23,656 nt of DNA. Source: a virus. How positions within the stretch are numbered: the stretch's first letter is position 1; every line of letters starts with the position of its first letter. A model generated the notes under the pieces. That model saw only the letters and a program-made list of their open reading frames with translations, was not told where the DNA came from and did not search any database. The DNA lies in IMG/VR virus record IMGVR_UViG_3300010397_000089, positions 1 through 23,656 of that record, one strand, 5' to 3'. Below are positions 5,682 through 19,626 of this stretch, in pieces. The position numbers were made by a program, and so were the translations under genes.

Positions 5682-7793
5682 ATGGCCAATGCAGCCGCCT
5701 CGAAGCCGAACCCGCTGGAGTACCAGACCCAGCGGGCGATCGTACTGCAGGCGGCCGACCGCGATGTCATCAAGATCCTGAAGGATCTCCAGGCGGACGT
5801 CCGTGCCCAGCTTCGCGCCCTGGAGCTGTCCAACAAGCCTGGCGTCGGCCGGATGATCCGGGAGTCGCAGCTCCGGCTCGTCCAGCGCAACCTACAGGTC
5901 GAGCTGGCGAAGGCGTGGCGCCGGGTCGGTGACGTGACCGAGGCCCGGCGCGTGGAGGCAGCGATCCGCTCCGCCAACTACGCTAAGGAAGAGAACACCT
6001 TCAGGCTCGTGACGGGAGGGGTAGCTGATGGGGGACTGATCGCTGATCACATCTTCGAGTCCGAGGCGGCCAACGCTGCCTCGGGCCTGGATCGGATGAT
6101 CGCTCGGACGTCCGGCGCCTCCTACGTCCCGTTGAGCGATCGGGTCTACAACTCCTCGGTCCACATCGGCGGCCAGCTCGACCGGATCGTCAACTCCGCC
6201 ATCGCTCGCGGGCTCTCGGCAGTCGAGTTCGCTCGCGAGGTGCGGCAGTTCGTCAATCCGCTGACTCCGGGCGGAGTTCGTTATGCGGCAATGCGTCTCG
6301 CGCGGACCGAGATCAACAACGCGGCCCACGCGATGGCCGTCCACGCCGTTCGGGATACGCCCTGGATCGACAAGATGCAGTGGCACCTATCGGGCTCGCA
6401 CGGGCGGCCGGACGTCTGTGACCAGCTGGCGAAGGGCGGCCCGAATAACAATGGGGCCTACCCGAAGGGCGCCGTGCCGTCGAAGCCCCACCCGCAGTGC
6501 CTGTGCTTCGTGACGCCGGTCTCGGCGGATGACGAGGAGTTCGAGAGCAACCTGTTGGCCGGGCGCTACAACCAGTACCTGGAGAAGTACCGGAACCTCC
6601 AGCCTGGGCAGGTCGTCTCGACCTCGTTTGGCGGATTCGCGCCGAAGGCTCCGACGCCGAGGCCTGTCCGGCCGACGAAGACTGCGACCCCAGAGAAGCC
6701 TGGGGCCAAGCCGCCAACGCAATCGGCTCCGAAGCCTCCTGGGGCGCCGACTCCGGCGACCTTCCAGCAGGAGCACATCGACTTCGCCAAGGTTCAGACG
6801 CGATATGGGGTAGACGCCGAGACTACGGCAAAGAACCTGATGCAGAGGTTCGGCGTCTCTCGTGAGCACGCGGATGAGATCGTCAAGCATGCACGGGCCG
6901 ACACACCCGGAATTGCCGTCGCGCCAAGGCCAGCTCCGGTGCCGCCCCCGAAGCCGTCGCCTGCCTCGCTCCAGGTCCGGGCGAATGAGATGGCGAGCCA
7001 GGGTTTCGGACAGGGCCAGATCGTGAAACAGCTGACTGCGGAAGGGGCGACCGGGAGCGACGCCCTGAAGGCTGCGCTGGATGCGGGGAAGTCCTTGGCA
7101 GTCCGGACTGTTCCGCCGGGGGTAAGCGCCGCTCCAGTCGCTCGCGTGACCCAGTCTTCCGAGGCACTGCTGAAGGCGAAGGTGAATCTACGAGGCTTGG
7201 AGAAGGCGCGGATTGAGGATGAGCTGCTTCGGCAGGCCAAGCTTGTGCCGCGAACTGCCAACCGACTCAACGGCGTTGACTACATGGACGCTGGGACTGC
7301 GGCCCGGATTGGTGCTCCGTCTGACGCTCTTGGCGTGTATTTGCCACGAGAGCAGAGGATTTACCTCAACCAGACCATCTTCAAGTCGCGATATGCCGAT
7401 TCGGTTTACCGCCGGGAGGTCCGCGCCAACTGGTGTTCGCATGCTGATGGGCACGTGAGGGGAGACCAGGCCACCTTCGGTCACGAGTTCGGCCATCACG
7501 TTGGTGAGCAGATCGCAAAGCTTCCCCTCCAGACCCGGACGGCCTTCTGGAAGGGGATTGCGAATGATCTCGGCGTGCCGCCGCCAATAGATGGCTCGCC
7601 GGGCTTCCTGAAGTCGTGGATGTCGAAGAACAAGAGCCAGCTACAGTCGCTCGTATCGGAGTATGGCACCACGAACGAGCATGAGTTGCTGGCGGAGATC
7701 TGGCACGAGTACACGCAGGCTAGCGGGGCGAACCGGAGGGCCTGGATCGGGAAGGCGGGCGACCGCATGCGAGACTTGGCGGAGACATCATGA
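5682..7793 (+). CDS. MuF head protein fused to a lethal-factor-like metallopeptidase
   Basis: A 703-residue fusion. Residues 1-290 form a MuF/SPP1 gp7-type head morphogenesis domain with RTEINN at 208-213, W234, D244-V-C246 and the HPQCLC signature at 270-275. Residues 320-480 are Pro/Ala-rich linkers around two short helical modules (about 361-402 and 429-475). Residues 485-703 form a zinc metallopeptidase: HEFGH at 601-605, and YGTTNEHELLAE starting at Tyr661 with Glu668 and Glu672. That spacing matches anthrax lethal factor as I recall it (HEFGH; Tyr728, Glu735, Glu739). MuF proteins enter the virion, so the peptidase is probably packaged and may be injected into the host, as proposed for MuF polymorphic toxins. 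A capsid maturation role is the alternative. Third-position GC falls from 86% in the first 50 codons to 62% in 50 codons near 7200-7349. The start has only a weak ribosome binding site, so coupling to the portal is likely. Confidence 0.92.
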   Translation: MANAAASKPNPLEYQTQRAIVLQAADRDVIKILKDLQADVRAQLRALELSNKPGVGRMIRESQLRLVQRNLQVELAKAWRRVGDVTEARRVEAAIRSANYAKEENTFRLVTGGVADGGLIADHIFESEAANAASGLDRMIARTSGASYVPLSDRVYNSSVHIGGQLDRIVNSAIARGLSAVEFAREVRQFVNPLTPGGVRYAAMRLARTEINNAAHAMAVHAVRDTPWIDKMQWHLSGSHGRPDVCDQLAKGGPNNNGAYPKGAVPSKPHPQCLCFVTPVSADDEEFESNLLAGRYNQYLEKYRNLQPGQVVSTSFGGFAPKAPTPRPVRPTKTATPEKPGAKPPTQSAPKPPGAPTPATFQQEHIDFAKVQTRYGVDAETTAKNLMQRFGVSREHADEIVKHARADTPGIAVAPRPAPVPPPKPSPASLQVRANEMASQGFGQGQIVKQLTAEGATGSDALKAALDAGKSLAVRTVPPGVSAAPVARVTQSSEALLKAKVNLRGLEKARIEDELLRQAKLVPRTANRLNGVDYMDAGTAARIGAPSDALGVYLPREQRIYLNQTIFKSRYADSVYRREVRANWCSHADGHVRGDQATFGHEFGHHVGEQIAKLPLQTRTAFWKGIANDLGVPPPIDGSPGFLKSWMSKNKSQLQSLVSEYGTTNEHELLAEIWHEYTQASGANRRAWIGKAGDRMRDLAETS

Positions 7794-8714: not shown

Positions 8715-9149
8715 ATGGCACAGACTCAGTTCGGCCGCTTTGACAAGTACAACGGCTTCGTGGGCGGTTTTCGCGCGCCTCTCAATGCGGCGATGAGCAG
8801 CACGGCGAACGACGTCGGCAAGGTGCAGGCGGTCGGCGTCAACACTTCCGGCAAGCTCATCATTGGCTCGGCGGCCGTCACCGGCATCGTCGGCCTCGTC
8901 TGCCCGACGAAGGTGATGAACGCGGGCGACCCGATCGACGTCATGGTGCGCGGCGAGATCATGGACGTGGTCAAGACGGCGGGCACGGCCTGGACCGTGG
9001 GCGACATCGTGTACGCTCACGCGGACGGGACGCTGGACGCCGTGGCGACGGCGGGGGTGGCCGTGGGCCGCATCCTGGAGGGACCGAAGGCTTCCGGCCT
9101 CGGCGCCCGCATGCTGGTGACCGTTCCCGTCGCGACGACGGCATCCTAA
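8715..9149 (+). CDS. Head decoration protein
   Basis: A 144-residue, Gly/Ala/Val-rich, beta-rich protein encoded immediately upstream of the major capsid protein. Phrases such as VGLVCPTKVMNAGDPIDVMV and GDIVYAHADGTLDAV resemble the compact beta-fold of capsid cementing proteins (the DUF2190-type group in my recollection). Such proteins bind the outside of the expanded shell and stabilise it. The ATG follows GAGGGGTGGTG. Third codon positions are almost all G/C, in keeping with high expression. The exact family cannot be confirmed without a profile search. Confidence 0.75.
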   Translation: MAQTQFGRFDKYNGFVGGFRAPLNAAMSSTANDVGKVQAVGVNTSGKLIIGSAAVTGIVGLVCPTKVMNAGDPIDVMVRGEIMDVVKTAGTAWTVGDIVYAHADGTLDAVATAGVAVGRILEGPKASGLGARMLVTVPVATTAS

Positions 9150-10678: not shown

Positions 10679-10996
10679 GTGGCTTCAATCGAGGACGTAT
10701 CCCAGCTCCGGCTGATGGTCGCGGAGCCGGACGACTCGACGTACGATGATGCGGCTCTGGGAGCCCTCCTGGACTCGTACGCGACCGCAACGGTTCCGCT
10801 GTCGCGGGCGGCGCGGGACGTGTGGGTGCAGAAGGCCGCAGCCTACGCCGAACTGGTGGACATCTCGGAGGGCGGCTCACAGCGCAAGAACGGCGACCTC
10901 CACAAGCGAGCGCTGACGATGGCGGACCTCTACGCGACCCAGATCGACCTCGACACGAGCGACCGGCCGACGCGGATTGCTAGGCTGGTGCGCTGA
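10679..10996 (+). CDS. Head-tail connector (adaptor) protein
   Basis: A 105-residue helical protein beginning with GTG after AGGGGG. The pattern of an N-terminal DVSQLRLMVAEPDDSTYDDA, then ALLDSYA, a long helix with VWVQKAAAYAEL, and a C-terminal helix with DLHKRALTMADLYATQI fits the gp6/gp15-type adaptors that form the ring under the portal. It is the first gene after the terminator, which also fits the first connector. The stop overlaps the next ATG (TGATG). Confidence 0.75.
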   Translation: MASIEDVSQLRLMVAEPDDSTYDDAALGALLDSYATATVPLSRAARDVWVQKAAAYAELVDISEGGSQRKNGDLHKRALTMADLYATQIDLDTSDRPTRIARLVR

Positions 10997-11331
10997 TGGC
11001 GATGGAGCTGGATCTCAAGCTAGACCAAGGCTCTCGGTGGATCGCCGTGTTCACGCCGCAGGTCGAGTGGCTCTCGTCGCTCGCCGGGTACTCCGCCCGG
11101 GGCAAGGTCAAGACCTCCCGGACGCTCCCCGGGGCGTCGCTGCTGTTCGACTTCGCGGCGTACATGACAGTGCAGGGCAACGATGTCGTCGTGGACGTTC
11201 CGGCCGACGCCCTCGCCGCGCAGTCTTGGAGGGTGGGCGAGTACGACTTCGAGCTGTACGACGGCAACGCTGCGCATGACGTCCGGTTCCTGCAGGGCAA
11301 GATCAGTCTCGATCCCGAGGTGACAACGTGA
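10996..11331 (+). CDS. Small beta-rich connector-region protein
   Basis: A 111-residue protein coupled to the adaptor gene by a TGATG overlap and to the next gene by GTGA. The sequence is beta-rich: DLKLDQGSRWIAVFTPQVEW at the N-terminus, GYSARGKVKTSRT in the middle and YDFELYDGNAAHDVRFLQGK toward the end. That suggests an Ig-like or beta-sandwich fold, as in small neck or virion proteins that begin with a D-Q-G-x-x-W/F phrase. I recognise no specific family. Its position suggests a virion structural role. Confidence 0.72.
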   Translation: MAMELDLKLDQGSRWIAVFTPQVEWLSSLAGYSARGKVKTSRTLPGASLLFDFAAYMTVQGNDVVVDVPADALAAQSWRVGEYDFELYDGNAAHDVRFLQGKISLDPEVTT

Positions 11332-11951
11332 AGCTGTACCGCCAGGCGTACGCCAAGGCGTACAACAAGGAAATCGACTGGGACTCCGACGCGCTGGTGT
11401 GGACCCAGCACACGTCGACCTACGTCCCGAACCAGGACACGCACGCCTACGTGTCCGACCTCACCAACGAACTCACGACCGGTGGCGGCTACACGGCGGG
11501 CGGGCTCGCCATCGCCTCGCCCACGCGGACCTACACGGCCGCCAACGCCTGGACGGTGCAGCGGGCCAACACGACCGCGTACGCCGTGGGGGACATCGTG
11601 CGCCCCGCGACCGGCAACGGGTTCCTCTACATGGCCTCCGTGGCGGGCACCTCCGGCGGCTCGATACCGACCTACCCGACCGTCGTGGGAACGACGGTGG
11701 CGGACGGCGGCGTGACGTGGGAGTGCATCGGCTCCGGCATCATCGTCTTCGGCTGCTCCGACCCGTCGTGGTCCTCGGCGACCTTCGGCCCGGCGCGGTA
11801 CGCCGTCCTGTCCGACCGGACGCCCGGCACGGCCGCGACCCAGCCGCTCATCGGATACGTCGATTACGGCTCCGACAAGACCGGCGGTGGGCTCGCCTTC
11901 ACGGTCCAGCTCCACACCGCGCTCCGCGCGATGCACATCGTGGTTCCGTAA
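11328..11951 (+). CDS. Virion structural protein with a chitin-binding-like domain
   Basis: A 207-residue protein with a GTG start overlapping the previous stop. The first 80 residues resemble actinophage virion proteins (TYVPNQDTHAYVSDLTNELT). Residues 70-140 form a small aromatic-rich domain: AWTVQRANTTAYAVGDIVRP, then GFLYMASVAGTSG, PTYP and VADGGVTWECIG. The Y-x-x-GD-x-V-x-P and DGxVTWxxxG phrases resemble carbohydrate-binding modules found in phage structural proteins. It probably sits on the virion surface near the neck or capsid; this location is inferred from gene order. Confidence 0.75.
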   Translation: MKLYRQAYAKAYNKEIDWDSDALVWTQHTSTYVPNQDTHAYVSDLTNELTTGGGYTAGGLAIASPTRTYTAANAWTVQRANTTAYAVGDIVRPATGNGFLYMASVAGTSGGSIPTYPTVVGTTVADGGVTWECIGSGIIVFGCSDPSWSSATFGPARYAVLSDRTPGTAATQPLIGYVDYGSDKTGGGLAFTVQLHTALRAMHIVVP

Positions 11952-11960
11952 GGGGAAGCC

Positions 11961-13361
11961 GTGACTGTCAGCTTCGGTGTCGGCACCAACTACCTGGCTT
12001 TCACGGCTGGCTCCTCGGCCGCTATGGGGTCCGGGGCGTTCTCCATGTTCGCCTTGGTAAAGTTCGGCGGCGGGAACAACAATGGTGGCGTCTGGGGCGG
12101 CTACAACTCAACCACCGCCGTCCGGGCGTTCGGCGAGGCCAGCAATGCGCTGTTCGGCCTGAACGACTTCTCCGGCGGCGTGGGGCCGCTGACCCAGGGC
12201 ACGTGGTACATCGTCGGCATCACGAAGGCCGCTGGGTCGGCCATGTACCGGATGCACTTCCGGGCGCAGGGGGCAGGCTCCTGGACCCATGCGGTGGGGA
12301 GCGGCGCATCCAACCAGTCGGACGGGTCGGCGCTCACCGAGCACCGCATCGGCTTCTCGGCGGTGTTTGGCGGCAACGTCGATGTCGGCTGGGCCGGTCT
12401 GTGGACCTCGGCGCTCGCTGATGCCTCGATCGATACCTGCGGAACGTCGGCGCTGCAGGACTTCGCCAGCCTTTCGCCGCAGGACCTGATTGAGTTCTCC
12501 GGTTGGAACGGGACCTCCGGGCACACGAGGCCGATTGGCACCACAACGCTGACCGGGGCGACGGGAACCAACTCCGTAGGCACCAACCCAACCTACAACT
12601 TCACGGTCTCTGGCGGCGGCACCGCCGTCAACGTCGCAGACGTCGTGAACTCCGGCGCCCGGATGCTATCGGCCGGGGGCGCAGCCTTCCTGGGCGTGCT
12701 GGCGGCCGACTCCGCGAACACCGGCCTCCGGGCGGGGCAGTCTGTCACGCAGCAGGCCTCCGGGCTCCTCGTGGTGGATGCTCCAAGCCTCATCCGGGCG
12801 CCAGGGAGTCAGGCGAGCGCGCTCACCGGCGTGCTCGTGGCGGACGTCGAGAACACCGGCCTCCGGGCGCCGGAGAGCCCGGCAACGGCCGTCAACGTCT
12901 CAGCCTTCCCGGACCTGGACCAGATGGCGCCTCGGGCGCTCTCGGCGGATGGCCCCGGAGTCGTCACCGGCGTGGCTGTGGCGGATGCCCCTTCGGCCGT
13001 TCGGGTGGGATCGTCGGCCGCTCTCGGCGCCTTCGGGCTCCTCGCCCTCGACACGCCGGGCTCAGCAACCCGCCTAGGAGCCTCGCTCGCCAACGTTCTG
13101 GCCGGGGTGGTAGTCTCGGATACCCCCGGGCTCGTCCGTTGGCTCTCCGCCACAGAGAGCGTGTTGGCTCCGGTCGGCAACCCGGTCGATCTCCGGCCGC
13201 TCCCGGCCCGGTGGCTCTCGGCGGATGCCTCGGTGTTCATCCAGCAGCCGTCGCACGAGGTGCCGGTGCCCCCGATCATCGTGCCGGTCTCGCGCTTCCG
13301 GGCTGGGTCTCGGGTGGGCGTGACCCGGATAATCGTGCCAGTGGAGGAGGTGCGGGCATGA
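11961..13361 (+). CDS. LamG-like surface protein with Arg-anchored repeats
   Basis: A 466-residue protein with a GTG start after AAGGGGAA. Residues 1-200 look like a concanavalin/LamG lectin fold: FSMFALVKFGGG, GTWYIVGITKAAGS, then NVDVGWAGLWTSALADASID, the usual closing strand and helix of that family. Residues 225-430 hold about eight degenerate units of 22-24 residues, each anchored by Arg (234, 257, 279, 302, 325, 348, 371, 393, 417) with a G-[VL]-x-[VA]-x-D core. Residues 431-466 form a Pro/Val-rich basic tail. The lectin part suggests glycan binding and the repeats a stalk or solenoid. It lies between connector genes, an odd place for an adhesin, so a head or neck fibre is a reasonable guess. 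The stop overlaps the next ATG. Confidence 0.82.
   Translation: MTVSFGVGTNYLAFTAGSSAAMGSGAFSMFALVKFGGGNNNGGVWGGYNSTTAVRAFGEASNALFGLNDFSGGVGPLTQGTWYIVGITKAAGSAMYRMHFRAQGAGSWTHAVGSGASNQSDGSALTEHRIGFSAVFGGNVDVGWAGLWTSALADASIDTCGTSALQDFASLSPQDLIEFSGWNGTSGHTRPIGTTTLTGATGTNSVGTNPTYNFTVSGGGTAVNVADVVNSGARMLSAGGAAFLGVLAADSANTGLRAGQSVTQQASGLLVVDAPSLIRAPGSQASALTGVLVADVENTGLRAPESPATAVNVSAFPDLDQMAPRALSADGPGVVTGVAVADAPSAVRVGSSAALGAFGLLALDTPGSATRLGASLANVLAGVVVSDTPGLVRWLSATESVLAPVGNPVDLRPLPARWLSADASVFIQQPSHEVPVPPIIVPVSRFRAGSRVGVTRIIVPVEEVRA
12660..13250 (+). repeat. About eight 66-72 bp coding repeats
   Basis: This is the DNA encoding the 22-24-residue units of the LamG protein. The units are diverged at DNA level, but an 18-bp identical piece (AACACCGGCCTCCGGGCG) recurs at 12717-12734 and 12852-12869, 135 bp apart, which equals two units. 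This points to past duplication of a two-unit block. Confidence 0.7.
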
Positions 13362-16788: not shown

Positions 16789-19626
16789 GTGGCAGGGCAG
16801 TATAACCTCGGGACGGCCGAGGGAACCATCAAGATCAACTACGATGGCAAGGGCTCGAAGCAAGCGCAGCAGGACTTCCAGAACGTCGAGAAGTCCGCCA
16901 AGAAGACATCAGGCTCGTTGACCGAGGCCGGGAACAAGGCTGCTGTTGCTGGCGGCCTCCTCGCCGCAGGGCTCGGCTACGCAACCACAAAGGCCATCGA
17001 CTTCGAGAAGCAGATCAGCGCGATTGGCGCCGTCTCCGGCGCCACGAAGGCGGATCTGGAGGACCTGCGCAAGAAGGCGCTGCAGATTGGCGCCGACACG
17101 TCCTTCAGCGCCTCGCAGGCGGCGCTCGCTATGGAGGAGCTGGCAAAGGCAGGCGTCAACACCAAGGACATCCTGAATGGCGCGGCCGACGCTACTGTCG
17201 CCCTCGCCGCTGCGGGCGGAGTCGAGCTGCCTGAGGCGGCTGGCATCGCCGCCAACGCCATGAACCTCTTTGGGTTGACTGCCAAGGAACTCCCGAAGGT
17301 CGTGGACCAGATTGCGGGGGCGGCCAACAACTCTGCGATTGACGTCCACGACTTCGGGTACTCCCTGGCTCAGGTTGGCGCCGTCGCCAAGCTGTCCGGG
17401 CTCTCGTTCCAGGACACGGCCGTGGCGATCACCGCCATGGGTAACGCTGGCATCAAGGGCTCCGACGCAGGCACCTCGCTGAAGTCCTTCCTGCAGAACC
17501 TCATCCCGACGACGAAGCAGCAAATCGCGCTCTCGAAGGAGCTTGGCCTCATCACTAAGGATGGGTCCAACGCCTTCTTCGATCAGTCAGGCAAGGTGAA
17601 GAGCCTCGCGGATATCGCGCAGGTGCTGCAGAACTCCATGAAGGGGCTGTCGAAGGAGCAGCAGCTCAGCTACCTCAACACCCTGTTTGGGTCGGATGCG
17701 ATCCGTGCGGCGGCCGTCATCGCGGGCGAGGGCGCGCAGGGCTTCAACGACCTCGCTACGGCGCTGAACAAGACCTCGGCGGCCGACGTCGCGGCGGCCC
17801 GACTCGACAACACAGCAGGCAAGATCGAGCAGATGAAGGGCCAGCTGGAGACCGCCTCGATCCAGATTGGGACGGCGCTCCTTCCGGCGCTCCTCCAGAC
17901 TGTTGATGTGGTATCCAAGCTCGCGACATGGTTCTCCAACCTGTCGCCTGCGACGCAGAAGACCATCATCACCGTCGTCCAGGCGGTGGCAGCCTTCCTG
18001 CTGATCTTCGCCGCCGTCACGAAGGTCATCGCCATCGTTAGGGCCGTCCAGGCGGCCTGGATCGCGCTCAACGCGTCATTCCTGTTCTCGCCAATTGGCC
18101 TGATCATCATCGCCATCGTCGCGCTCGTCGCGGCCTTCGTCATCCTCTGGGTCAAGTTCGCCTGGTTCCGCAACTTCTGGATCGGGACCTGGAACGTCAT
18201 CTGGGGCGCTCTGAAGGCCATCGGGAGCTGGTTCGCTGGACCGTTCGCGGACTTCTTCGTCAAGACCTGGAACGTCATCTGGGGCTTCTTCAAGGCGATC
18301 GGCGCCTGGTTCGCCGGGCCGTTTGCCAACTTCTTCGTCAGCCTCTGGAACGTCATCTGGCCCGTCCTCTCTGCGATCGGGAAGGGGGCGAAGGCCGTCT
18401 GGGACGGCATCGTTGCAGGGGTGACGTTCGTCTGGAACATCATCAAGGCCATCTTCAACTTCTTCGCCCCGTTGATTAAGGCCACCTTCGGCCTCGCGGT
18501 CGACATCGTCAAGACGGCGTGGTCCATCATCTCGGCGCTCTTCCAGGTGGCGGCCACCGTATGGGGCGCCATCTTCAAGGCCATCGCGACCGTCATCCTG
18601 GCCATCTGGAACTTCCTGTGGAACACCACCGTTGCAGTGGTGAAGTTCGTCTGGGGCCTGATCGAGCCGATCATCACATGGGCTTGGGACCGGATCGTCA
18701 AGGCGATCCAGTTCGGGGCGCAGGTCCTCACAGCCATCTGGAACTTCCTGTGGGGCGGGATCAAGGCTGCCGCCCAGGCCGTCTGGGACTGGATCGCGCC
18801 CTACATTCAGGCGTCGATCAACCTCACACGCGCCATCATCGAGACGGTTCTCAACTGGATCAGCACGGCCTGGGATGCGACGTGGGGCGTCATCAAGGGC
18901 GTTGCTTCGGCCGTCTGGGACTTCATCGTTGGCGTCATCCGCAAGGCCGTCGAGATCATCACCGGCCAGATCAACGCGATCCGCGCGCTGCTGGCGAAGG
19001 TCCGGGAGTTCTTCGATGGTCTGAAGAACGCTGCCTCCCAGGGCGTCGGCCCGCTGATCGCGTACGTCCGGCAGATCCCCGGGATGGTCTGGGATGCGAT
19101 CTCCGGGCTCGCCGGTCGTATGTGGGACGCCGGGAAGAATGCCATCCAGTCGCTCATCGACGGCATCAAGTCCATGGCCGGTAAGGTGTACGACATCGTG
19201 GAGGGCATCGTCGGCAAGGTCCGCAACCTGCTGCCCTTCTCGCCCGCCAAGGAGGGTCCGCTCTCCGGCCGAGGCTACACGCTGTACTCCGGCCAGGCGC
19301 TCGCCGAGGGTCTGGCTGAGGGCATCAGGCAGCGGGCCGGTAAGGCCGTCCAGGCGGCTCTGCAGATGGCCATGGCGGTTCAGGCTACCGCGAACCTCTC
19401 GCAGCCCCTTACAGCGGCTCTCGCGGGCGCTAACGGGTCCCCTACGTTCGTCAGCCCGGCGCCGAACGTCAGGGTTGCTCCGCAGATCAAGGTCTACGCG
19501 GTGATTGGCGACGAGGTGAAGGAGGTTGCCCGCACGACGATCGCCGAGGAGCCGGGGCTGGTCTCCGACTCCGCCAACAAGGGCAACCAGAGCCGCACAT
19601 TCCTCGCTCCCGGGAGGGCGCTGTGA
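16789..19626 (+). CDS. Tail tape measure protein
   Basis: A 945-residue protein, starting at a GTG after GAGGAGGTGAGA. It sets tail length and is ejected with the DNA. At about 0.15 nm per residue it predicts a tail of roughly 140 nm. The N-terminal 350 residues have the phage minor tail/TP901-type layout (FEKQISAIGAVSGATKADLE, then an ITAMGNAGIKGSDAGTSLKS segment). Two long hydrophobic stretches lie at about 391-416 and 434-457 and may insert into the host membrane. Residues 460-750 contain regularly spaced Trp/Phe residues, including exact 26-residue repeats with Trp at 468, 494 and 520. The C-terminus has NLLPFSPAKEGPLSGRGYT, a common tape measure ending. No lysozyme or peptidase domain is visible. 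Confidence 0.95.
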   Translation: MAGQYNLGTAEGTIKINYDGKGSKQAQQDFQNVEKSAKKTSGSLTEAGNKAAVAGGLLAAGLGYATTKAIDFEKQISAIGAVSGATKADLEDLRKKALQIGADTSFSASQAALAMEELAKAGVNTKDILNGAADATVALAAAGGVELPEAAGIAANAMNLFGLTAKELPKVVDQIAGAANNSAIDVHDFGYSLAQVGAVAKLSGLSFQDTAVAITAMGNAGIKGSDAGTSLKSFLQNLIPTTKQQIALSKELGLITKDGSNAFFDQSGKVKSLADIAQVLQNSMKGLSKEQQLSYLNTLFGSDAIRAAAVIAGEGAQGFNDLATALNKTSAADVAAARLDNTAGKIEQMKGQLETASIQIGTALLPALLQTVDVVSKLATWFSNLSPATQKTIITVVQAVAAFLLIFAAVTKVIAIVRAVQAAWIALNASFLFSPIGLIIIAIVALVAAFVILWVKFAWFRNFWIGTWNVIWGALKAIGSWFAGPFADFFVKTWNVIWGFFKAIGAWFAGPFANFFVSLWNVIWPVLSAIGKGAKAVWDGIVAGVTFVWNIIKAIFNFFAPLIKATFGLAVDIVKTAWSIISALFQVAATVWGAIFKAIATVILAIWNFLWNTTVAVVKFVWGLIEPIITWAWDRIVKAIQFGAQVLTAIWNFLWGGIKAAAQAVWDWIAPYIQASINLTRAIIETVLNWISTAWDATWGVIKGVASAVWDFIVGVIRKAVEIITGQINAIRALLAKVREFFDGLKNAASQGVGPLIAYVRQIPGMVWDAISGLAGRMWDAGKNAIQSLIDGIKSMAGKVYDIVEGIVGKVRNLLPFSPAKEGPLSGRGYTLYSGQALAEGLAEGIRQRAGKAVQAALQMAMAVQATANLSQPLTAALAGANGSPTFVSPAPNVRVAPQIKVYAVIGDEVKEVARTTIAEEPGLVSDSANKGNQSRTFLAPGRAL
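18187..18360 (+). repeat. 78-bp tandem repeat inside the tape measure gene
   Basis: ACCTGGAACGTCATCTGGGG occurs at 18187 and 18265, and a TGGAACGTCATCTGG core again at 18346, an exact period of 78 bp (26 residues: TWNVIWG, then KAIGxWFAGPFAxFF). High DNA identity suggests recent unit duplication, a simple way to lengthen a tail. Confidence 0.8.

What the first reader, a model, noticed from the sequence alone, without database searches (positions are those of the whole stretch)
11961..13361. Lectin-plus-repeat protein encoded among connector genes
A LamG-like domain followed by about eight units of 22-24 residues anchored on Arg 234, 257, 279, 302, 325, 348, 371, 393 and 417 with a G-[VL]-x-[VA]-x-D core. 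I know no named repeat family with this pattern. An adhesin-like gene between adaptor and closure genes suggests a head or neck appendage rather than a tail fibre.
Basis: partly seen in the sequence, partly recalled or inferred. Interest (0 to 1): 0.6.

Follow-up and report, generated by a model that had tools for sequence, protein, structure and literature searches.

The report
Lectin-tipped repeat fibre in mobile cassette
A soil phage carries, among the genes that build its neck, a protein with a probable sugar-binding head on a stalk of repeated 22-24-residue units; it belongs to a three-gene adhesion cassette that related phages carry at different places in their head genes, so it is probably an extra host-gripping fibre.

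Summary
The repeats are real. The 466-residue protein at 11961-13361 has Arg anchors exactly where stated. Period 23 exceeds 1,000 shuffles, and a profile built only from relatives scores its repeat region at 31 bits against 7.3 for the best shuffle. About six units are well formed. The first ~218 residues look like a ConA/LamG-type lectin by fold, from a weak model only. Relatives at the same place keep repeats and C-terminus but exchange the N-terminal domain and carry different numbers of units. The gene is the third of a cassette (p1084-p644-fibre) found between adaptor and stopper, portal and MuF, or TerS and TerL. p1084 is sequence-related to T5 p132, the collar protein that holds T5's side fibres, and to a structural protein of Pseudomonas phage KPP25. 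Best reading: an accessory side fibre on a p132-like anchor, separate from the tail tip. Gene position alone does not place it on the head or neck, because the cassette moves. Neck placement is favoured by portal adaptors in relatives with extra N-terminal domains, and by the tailless satellite MiniFlayer, which has a homologous p644 and a LamG-plus-repeat protein and binds its helper's neck with short fibres. Neck versus tail remains open.

The parts
10679..10996 (+). portal (head-to-tail) adaptor; conserved upstream flank of the cassette
   Evidence: profile A10 matches PDB 9gb5_I 'gp50 - Portal adaptor protein', E=7.2e-5; phrog_5274
10996..11331 (+). p1084: probable fibre anchor, related to T5 p132 / BppU_N
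   Evidence: phrog_1084; profile A4 hits KPP25 ORF087 (26dk_M, 5.2e-11), DT57C-type p132 (8hqz, 6.9e-6), T5 p132 (7qg9, 1.6e-4); L104 member hits BppU_N below cut-off (E=0.0045); hhalign to KPP25 ORF087 97.8%
11328..11951 (+). p644: second cassette gene, conserved beta-rich structural protein of unknown role
   Evidence: phrog_644, residues 1-83, E=2.3e-19; directly or nearly directly upstream of the fibre gene in the relatives; homologue is MiniFlayer gp6
11562..11729 (+). optional module inserted in p644 (about residues 79-134), shared with phrog_20658 (head decoration)
   Evidence: absent from MiniFlayer gp6 and the Rhodococcus homologue in the alignment; phrog_20658 E=2.3e-8 over residues 79-132
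11961..13361 (+). lectin-plus-repeat fibre protein, 466 aa
11961..12614 (+). exchangeable N-terminal domain, ConA/LamG-like (residues 1-218)
   Evidence: own profile found in L004 and the middle of L104; Foldseek of the low-confidence model; replaced by an unrelated-looking domain in L003, L005, L095, L099, L101
12612..12635 (+). junction motif GGTAVNV between N-terminal domain and repeats
   Evidence: same motif at the same boundary in L101, L003 (GSTATNV) and L099 (GGTDVNV); L071 GGATNVNV
12660..13208 (+). 22-24-residue repeats, R-x-[GL]-x-S-x(6)-G-V-x-V-x-D-x-P (residues 234-416); six well formed, the rest degenerate
   Evidence: predicted beta strands
13209..13358 (+). C-terminal segment ending V-x-EVRA, similar in L003 and L101
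   Evidence: last 45 residues 36-42% identical to L003/L101
13358..13738 (+). head-to-tail stopper; conserved downstream flank
   Evidence: phrog_4904; homologues annotated 'head-to-tail stopper'

Best explanation
The gene encodes an accessory adhesive side fibre of the virion. It is the third gene of a mobile three-gene cassette. p1084 is a p132/BppU_N-like protein that docks the fibre on the virion, presumably as a ring or collar around the tail or neck. p644 is a conserved companion of unknown role. The 466-residue protein is the fibre: an exchangeable N-terminal lectin-like head, a beta-rich stalk of 22-24-residue units whose number sets the length, and a short C-terminal end that is better conserved among the closest relatives and may be the attachment end. 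The head would bind a glycan on the host surface reversibly and so raise adsorption; the tail tip, encoded elsewhere, would do the irreversible step. Shown here: the repeats as conserved units, domain exchange, copy-number variation, cassette linkage and mobility, and p1084's sequence relation to p132. Inferred: the lectin fold, oligomeric fibre form, glycan binding, attachment through p1084, which end is distal, and the position on the particle (neck slightly favoured over tail).
For: Repeats statistically strong and conserved as units in independent relatives. L099 and L095 were not used to build the unit profile and give 9 units each, E=2e-31 and 1e-23. N-terminal domain exchanged: LamG-type in window, L004 and L104, another domain in L003, L005, L095, L099 and L101, both in L104; N-domain identity of window to L101 14% while repeats plus C-terminus are 48% and p644 78%. 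p1084-p644-fibre stay adjacent in three different places of the head module. p1084 related to T5 p132 and KPP25 ORF087; in T5, p132 is a dodecameric Ig-fold collar onto which the side fibres are grafted (PMC10038345). Accessory: relatives L022 and L006 go from adaptor straight to stopper, most surveyed relatives have a short MCP-stopper interval, and L019 has a different fibre-type protein in the same slot (phrog_14726 tail fibre). Near-complete records G001 and G005 carry the cassette once, plus a separate set of genes after Dit. MiniFlayer has a p644 homologue, a 1,376-aa protein with Laminin_G_3 and repeats, no tail tube or tape measure annotated, and short fibres seen by EM.
Against: No direct evidence that the protein is in the virion. 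AlphaFold models are poor (pLDDT 41.6 and 52.8), so neither lectin fold nor fibre shaft is established. Known fibres usually bind the virion with the N-terminus; here the lectin is N-terminal. MiniFlayer gp9 could not be shown to be related to p1084, and its gp8 repeats differ in sequence. L095 (record G004) has p644 and the fibre but no p1084 was found in its record.
Confidence: 0.62

Rival explanations
1. Neck (collar) fibre: the same device, specifically anchored at the portal adaptor/stopper region like whiskers.
For: In this window and four relatives the cassette lies between adaptor and stopper. Three relatives have portal adaptors with extra N-terminal domains: L037 (205 residues), L007 and L010 (about 110 residues; the L010 domain matches a tail-fibre PHROG, E=1.8e-5); the adaptor identity is supported by PDB 9gb5. 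MiniFlayer has only head and neck genes annotated plus this type of module, and binds its helper's neck with short fibres. A p1084 homologue is a structural protein of KPP25 (short-tailed, from my own knowledge).
Against: The cassette also sits at other places in the head module. p1084's best-studied relative forms a tail collar. The adaptor extensions of L007/L010 are not detectably related to p1084, and the L037 extension is unidentified.
Confidence: 0.42
2. Side tail fibre near the tail tip, its genes merely misplaced in the head operon.
For: p132 and BppU_N anchors sit on tail-tube rings or Dit in T5, TP901-1 and 80alpha (PMC10038345, PMC7291167). In Gordonia phages Orchid and GMA1 the p644 homologue lies in the tail/lysis region beside minor tail or hypothetical genes.
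Against: Repeated insertion among head/neck/packaging genes, never next to Dit, in the relatives that carry this fibre; MiniFlayer has the p644-lectin part without any tail gene annotated.
Confidence: 0.33
3. Capsid decoration: a lectin displayed on the head surface that sticks the phage to biofilm-like polysaccharide or soil glycans.
For: Cassette embedded in the head genes; p644 carries a module shared with phrog_20658 'head decoration'; MiniFlayer shows capsid-to-capsid adsorption too.
Against: An anchor of p132/BppU_N type points to a tube or neck ring; a separate decoration protein already exists (8715-9149).
Confidence: 0.15
4. Low-complexity or disordered linker whose periodicity has no structural meaning.
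For: Model confidence is low; composition is A/G/V/S rich; no significant fold match for the repeats.
Against: Units are conserved across diverged relatives and vary in number, and strands are predicted at the same place in each unit, at pLDDT about 60-67 over ten units of L099.
Confidence: 0.08

Closest known systems
T5 p132 collar with pb1 L-shaped side fibres (and BppU of TP901-1)
   Same: Small anchor protein related in sequence to p1084; fibre gene close by; fibre is accessory to the main receptor-binding machinery.
   Different: In T5 the anchor is in the tail-tip operon and the fibre's N-terminus is thought to be attached; here the cassette is in the head module, has p644 in between, and the lectin is N-terminal.
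MiniFlayer putative adsorption module (gp6-gp9)
   Same: p644 homologue (47% identical to the window protein), LamG plus tandem-repeat protein, small third protein annotated 'tail fiber', placed between MCP and adaptor.
   Different: Different repeat sequence (PMxGSG type), two LamG domains and other domains; gp9 not detectably related to p1084; it grips a helper phage's neck rather than a cell.
Lactococcal neck passage structure with carbohydrate-binding modules (936/P335 phages)
   Same: Idea of sugar-binding modules displayed at the neck (PMC6669499, abstract only).
   Different: No sequence relation was tested or seen; hosts and anchors differ.
Fibre-type protein of relative L019 (9824-11389)
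   Same: Occupies exactly the same slot between adaptor and stopper; tail-fibre PHROG at its N-terminus.
   Different: Different architecture (DHTHG repeats), no p1084/p644, no 23-residue repeats.

Membership tests
T5 p132 / BppU_N fibre anchors (for p1084) | sequence-profile similarity to p132 | tested here: met
   8hqz E=6.9e-6, 7qg9 E=1.6e-4, 26dk E=5.2e-11
T5 p132 / BppU_N fibre anchors (for p1084) | Pfam BppU_N above its cut-off | tested here: not met
   L104 member 17.1 bits against cut-off 23.1; the three other members scanned had no hit
T5 p132 / BppU_N fibre anchors (for p1084) | gene next to a fibre gene | tested here: met
   also phiHAP-1 and Phage C48C1, with annotated tail fibre genes close by
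T5 p132 / BppU_N fibre anchors (for p1084) | ring around the tube holding fibres | not testable with these tools
   needs cryo-EM
LamG / ConA-like lectin (N-terminal domain) | Pfam Laminin_G match | tested here: not met
   no match for window, L004 or L104
LamG / ConA-like lectin (N-terminal domain) | beta-sandwich lectin fold | tested here: inconclusive
   low-confidence model, but hits mainly ConA-like lectins
Any named repeat family | match to a curated repeat or a solved repeat fold | tested here: not met
   Pfam, PHROGs, PDB sequence and Foldseek PDB: none significant
MiniFlayer-type adsorption module | p644 homologue plus LamG-repeat protein near the adaptor | tested here: met
MiniFlayer-type adsorption module | anchor gp9 homologous to p1084 | tested here: inconclusive
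   hhalign probability 0.1%; phrog_3304 'L-shaped tail fiber protein assembly' only E=0.33 for gp9
Lactococcal neck passage structure | homology to NPS proteins | not tested
   no NPS sequence compared

The most novel reading that the evidence does not exclude
A mobile neck-adhesin cassette: a self-contained three-gene unit (p132-like anchor, p644, exchangeable lectin on a length-variable repeat stalk) that moves among head-module positions of actinophage-like viruses and builds neck fibres independent of the tail. Part of the same device (p644 plus LamG-repeat protein) would have been turned by the tailless satellite MiniFlayer into its grip on a helper's neck.
Probability: 0.3. Interest if true: 0.75.

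Novelty: new variant of a known kind. Interest (0 to 1): 0.5.

Why it matters
It gives a candidate function to phrog_1084 (a p132-like fibre anchor; the T5 paper regards p132 as a landmark of T5-like phages) and a context for phrog_644, both unannotated in PHROGs. It shows that adhesion genes can move as a unit inside the packaging and head modules, so gene order there is not a safe guide to where a protein sits on the virion. It also suggests a shared parts list between ordinary phages and a satellite that travels on its helper's neck, which is testable by electron microscopy.

Tried and rejected
tblastn of the protein and of relatives' fibre proteins against 50,697 phage records: nothing useful. 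Relation of p1084 to the extra N-terminal domains of the L007/L010 adaptors: hhalign 0.2%, rejected as a fusion argument for p1084 itself. p1084 versus MiniFlayer gp9: inconclusive. PDB profile search with fibre alignment A7: none; with p644: only chance antibody hits; with the alternative N-terminal domain: one weak unrelated-looking hit. Foldseek of the L099 repeat model: no significant PDB match; best viral-library match an 806-aa Microbacterium phage protein, E=0.009, not followed. Identity of the L037 adaptor extension: no Pfam, PHROG or PDB match, so 'lectin-like' there is only by eye. First run of the period test timed out and was repeated.

Full report
What is there. The window is a 23,656-base viral record with no wider genome held. 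A contig from another IMG/VR sample encodes residues 221-466 identically. The gene order is a standard siphovirus-type head and tail module: TerL, portal, MuF, scaffold, decoration, major capsid protein, adaptor, then p1084, p644 and the protein in question, then stopper, a gp10-like protein, tail completion, major tail protein, tape measure and Dit (some of these names rest on position and size only). The 466-residue gene starts at GTG 11961 behind AGGGGA and overlaps the stopper start; p644 overlaps p1084 in the same way. It therefore looks like one translationally coupled operon.

The repeats. Arg anchors are exactly at the stated residues. Period 23 has z=6.5; the highest maximum over all periods in 1,000 shuffles was 4.3. 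A profile built from the relatives L003, L004 and L005 alone gives 31.1 bits for the window repeat region, against 7.3 for the best of 1,000 shuffles. Six units are well formed; the others have lost the core. Two relatives not used for the profile, L099 and L095, hit it at E=2e-31 and 1e-23 with nine units each. So the repeats are conserved as units, and their number differs between relatives (from about six in the window to 15 or more scored units in L005). AlphaFold gives a poor model of the window protein (mean pLDDT 41.6). For L099 it gives a regular pattern of one long and one short strand per unit with pLDDT about 60-67 over the first ten units (mean 52.8 overall). That suggests beta-structured units and argues against disorder, but it does not establish a solenoid. 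These may be oligomeric shafts, which a single-chain prediction cannot show. Foldseek found no significant solved relative of the repeats.

The N-terminal domain. No profile library or PDB sequence recognises it. The weak model nevertheless matched mainly ConA-like lectins (legume lectins, neurexin LNS, galectin, CBM66, a phage evolved-Dit CBM). Its own profile also finds L004 and the middle of L104. L003, L005, L095, L099 and L101 have instead another N-terminal domain; L104 has both, separated by repeats. The swap is sharp: window versus L101 is 14% identical in the N-terminal domain but 48% in repeats plus C-terminus and 78% in p644. The boundary carries a conserved GGTxVNV motif in the window, L101, L003 and L099, also visible in L071. 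This is mosaic exchange of a probable binding head on a common stalk.

The cassette. p1084, p644 and the fibre gene are adjacent in the window, L003, L004, L005 and L101 between adaptor and stopper; in L099 between portal and MuF; and in L104 between TerS-like gene and TerL. L021 has p1084 after portal and a different repeat protein before MuF. Close relatives L022 and L006 lack all three, going from adaptor directly to stopper. In most of the other capsid-relatives the MCP-to-stopper interval is only about 0.6-1.6 kb. L019, with an 81% identical capsid protein, has a quite different tail-fibre-type protein in the same slot. The slot is thus a site for accessory appendage genes, and the cassette is mobile.

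The anchor. A nine-sequence profile of p1084 matches three solved proteins: KPP25 ORF087 (26dk, E=5e-11; identified as KPP25 by tblastn), the p132-type protein of 8hqz (7e-6) and T5 p132 (1.6e-4). hhalign to KPP25 ORF087 gives 97.8%. [quoted passage not shown] PMC7291167). In two other phages with a p1084 relative, phiHAP-1 and C48C1, annotated tail fibre genes are close by. This makes a fibre-anchor role for p1084 likely and, by linkage, a fibre role for the protein in question.

Where on the particle. Gene position alone is weak, because the cassette moves and because the p644 homologue lies in the tail/lysis region in Gordonia phages. Two independent lines favour the neck. First, the adjacent conserved gene is a portal adaptor (profile match to PDB 9gb5, E=7e-5), and in three relatives that adaptor carries an extra N-terminal domain (L037, L007, L010). 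Second, MiniFlayer, a satellite with head and neck genes but no tail tube or tape-measure gene annotated, has a p644 homologue (47% identical) and a 1,376-residue protein with Laminin_G_3 domains and repeats. It shows short fibres that adsorb to its helper's neck, and the authors propose these genes as an adsorption module (PMC10690885). Against this, p132 and BppU relatives sit on the tail. I leave neck about 0.42, tail 0.33 and capsid 0.15.

Not the main receptor-binding device. The near-complete records G001 and G005 carry one cassette each, and after Dit both have a large protein and small fibre-like proteins. In G001 the 1,014-residue protein contains a LamG-like stretch by eye only. The cassette therefore looks additional.

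Verdict. The location claim needs different evidence from that offered and stays open. It is a new variant of a known kind (anchored side fibre), with an unnamed repeat and an unusual mobile cassette in the head module.

Noticed in passing
L007:10240-12366, L010:11905-13458, L021:3093-5222, L071:11344-14010, L064:2-1714, L065:2302-3597: Many capsid-relatives have other tandem-repeat proteins among their head genes, with quite different units (14-residue HNTRALAGDNAVLL, 20-residue LTVAGV..., 20-residue GxAxETDTA...; the last matches phrog_14065). A whole class of repeat stalks of unknown structure.
   Followed up: partly
L037:9583-10527: A portal adaptor with a 205-residue N-terminal extension that looks lectin-like by eye but has no database match.
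   Followed up: partly
window 5682-7793: The MuF-type head protein is 703 aa and its C-terminal part contains a zincin-like motif (HEFGHHVGE), as in MuF proteins with polymorphic C-terminal domains.
   Followed up: no
window 16789-19626: The tape measure protein shows a strong 44-residue periodicity (z about 10), also seen in relatives' tape measures.
   Followed up: no
window 11562-11729: p644 carries an optional inserted module (residues ~79-134) missing in MiniFlayer and Rhodococcus homologues; the same module occurs in phrog_20658 (head decoration).
   Followed up: partly
L019:9824-11389: Same slot in a close relative is filled by a tail-fibre-type protein with repeated RGDHTHG motifs and a following 235-residue protein.
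   Followed up: partly
L182:13699-16743 (record G001): The 1,014-residue protein after Dit appears to contain an embedded LamG-like stretch by eye; no Pfam match.
   Followed up: no
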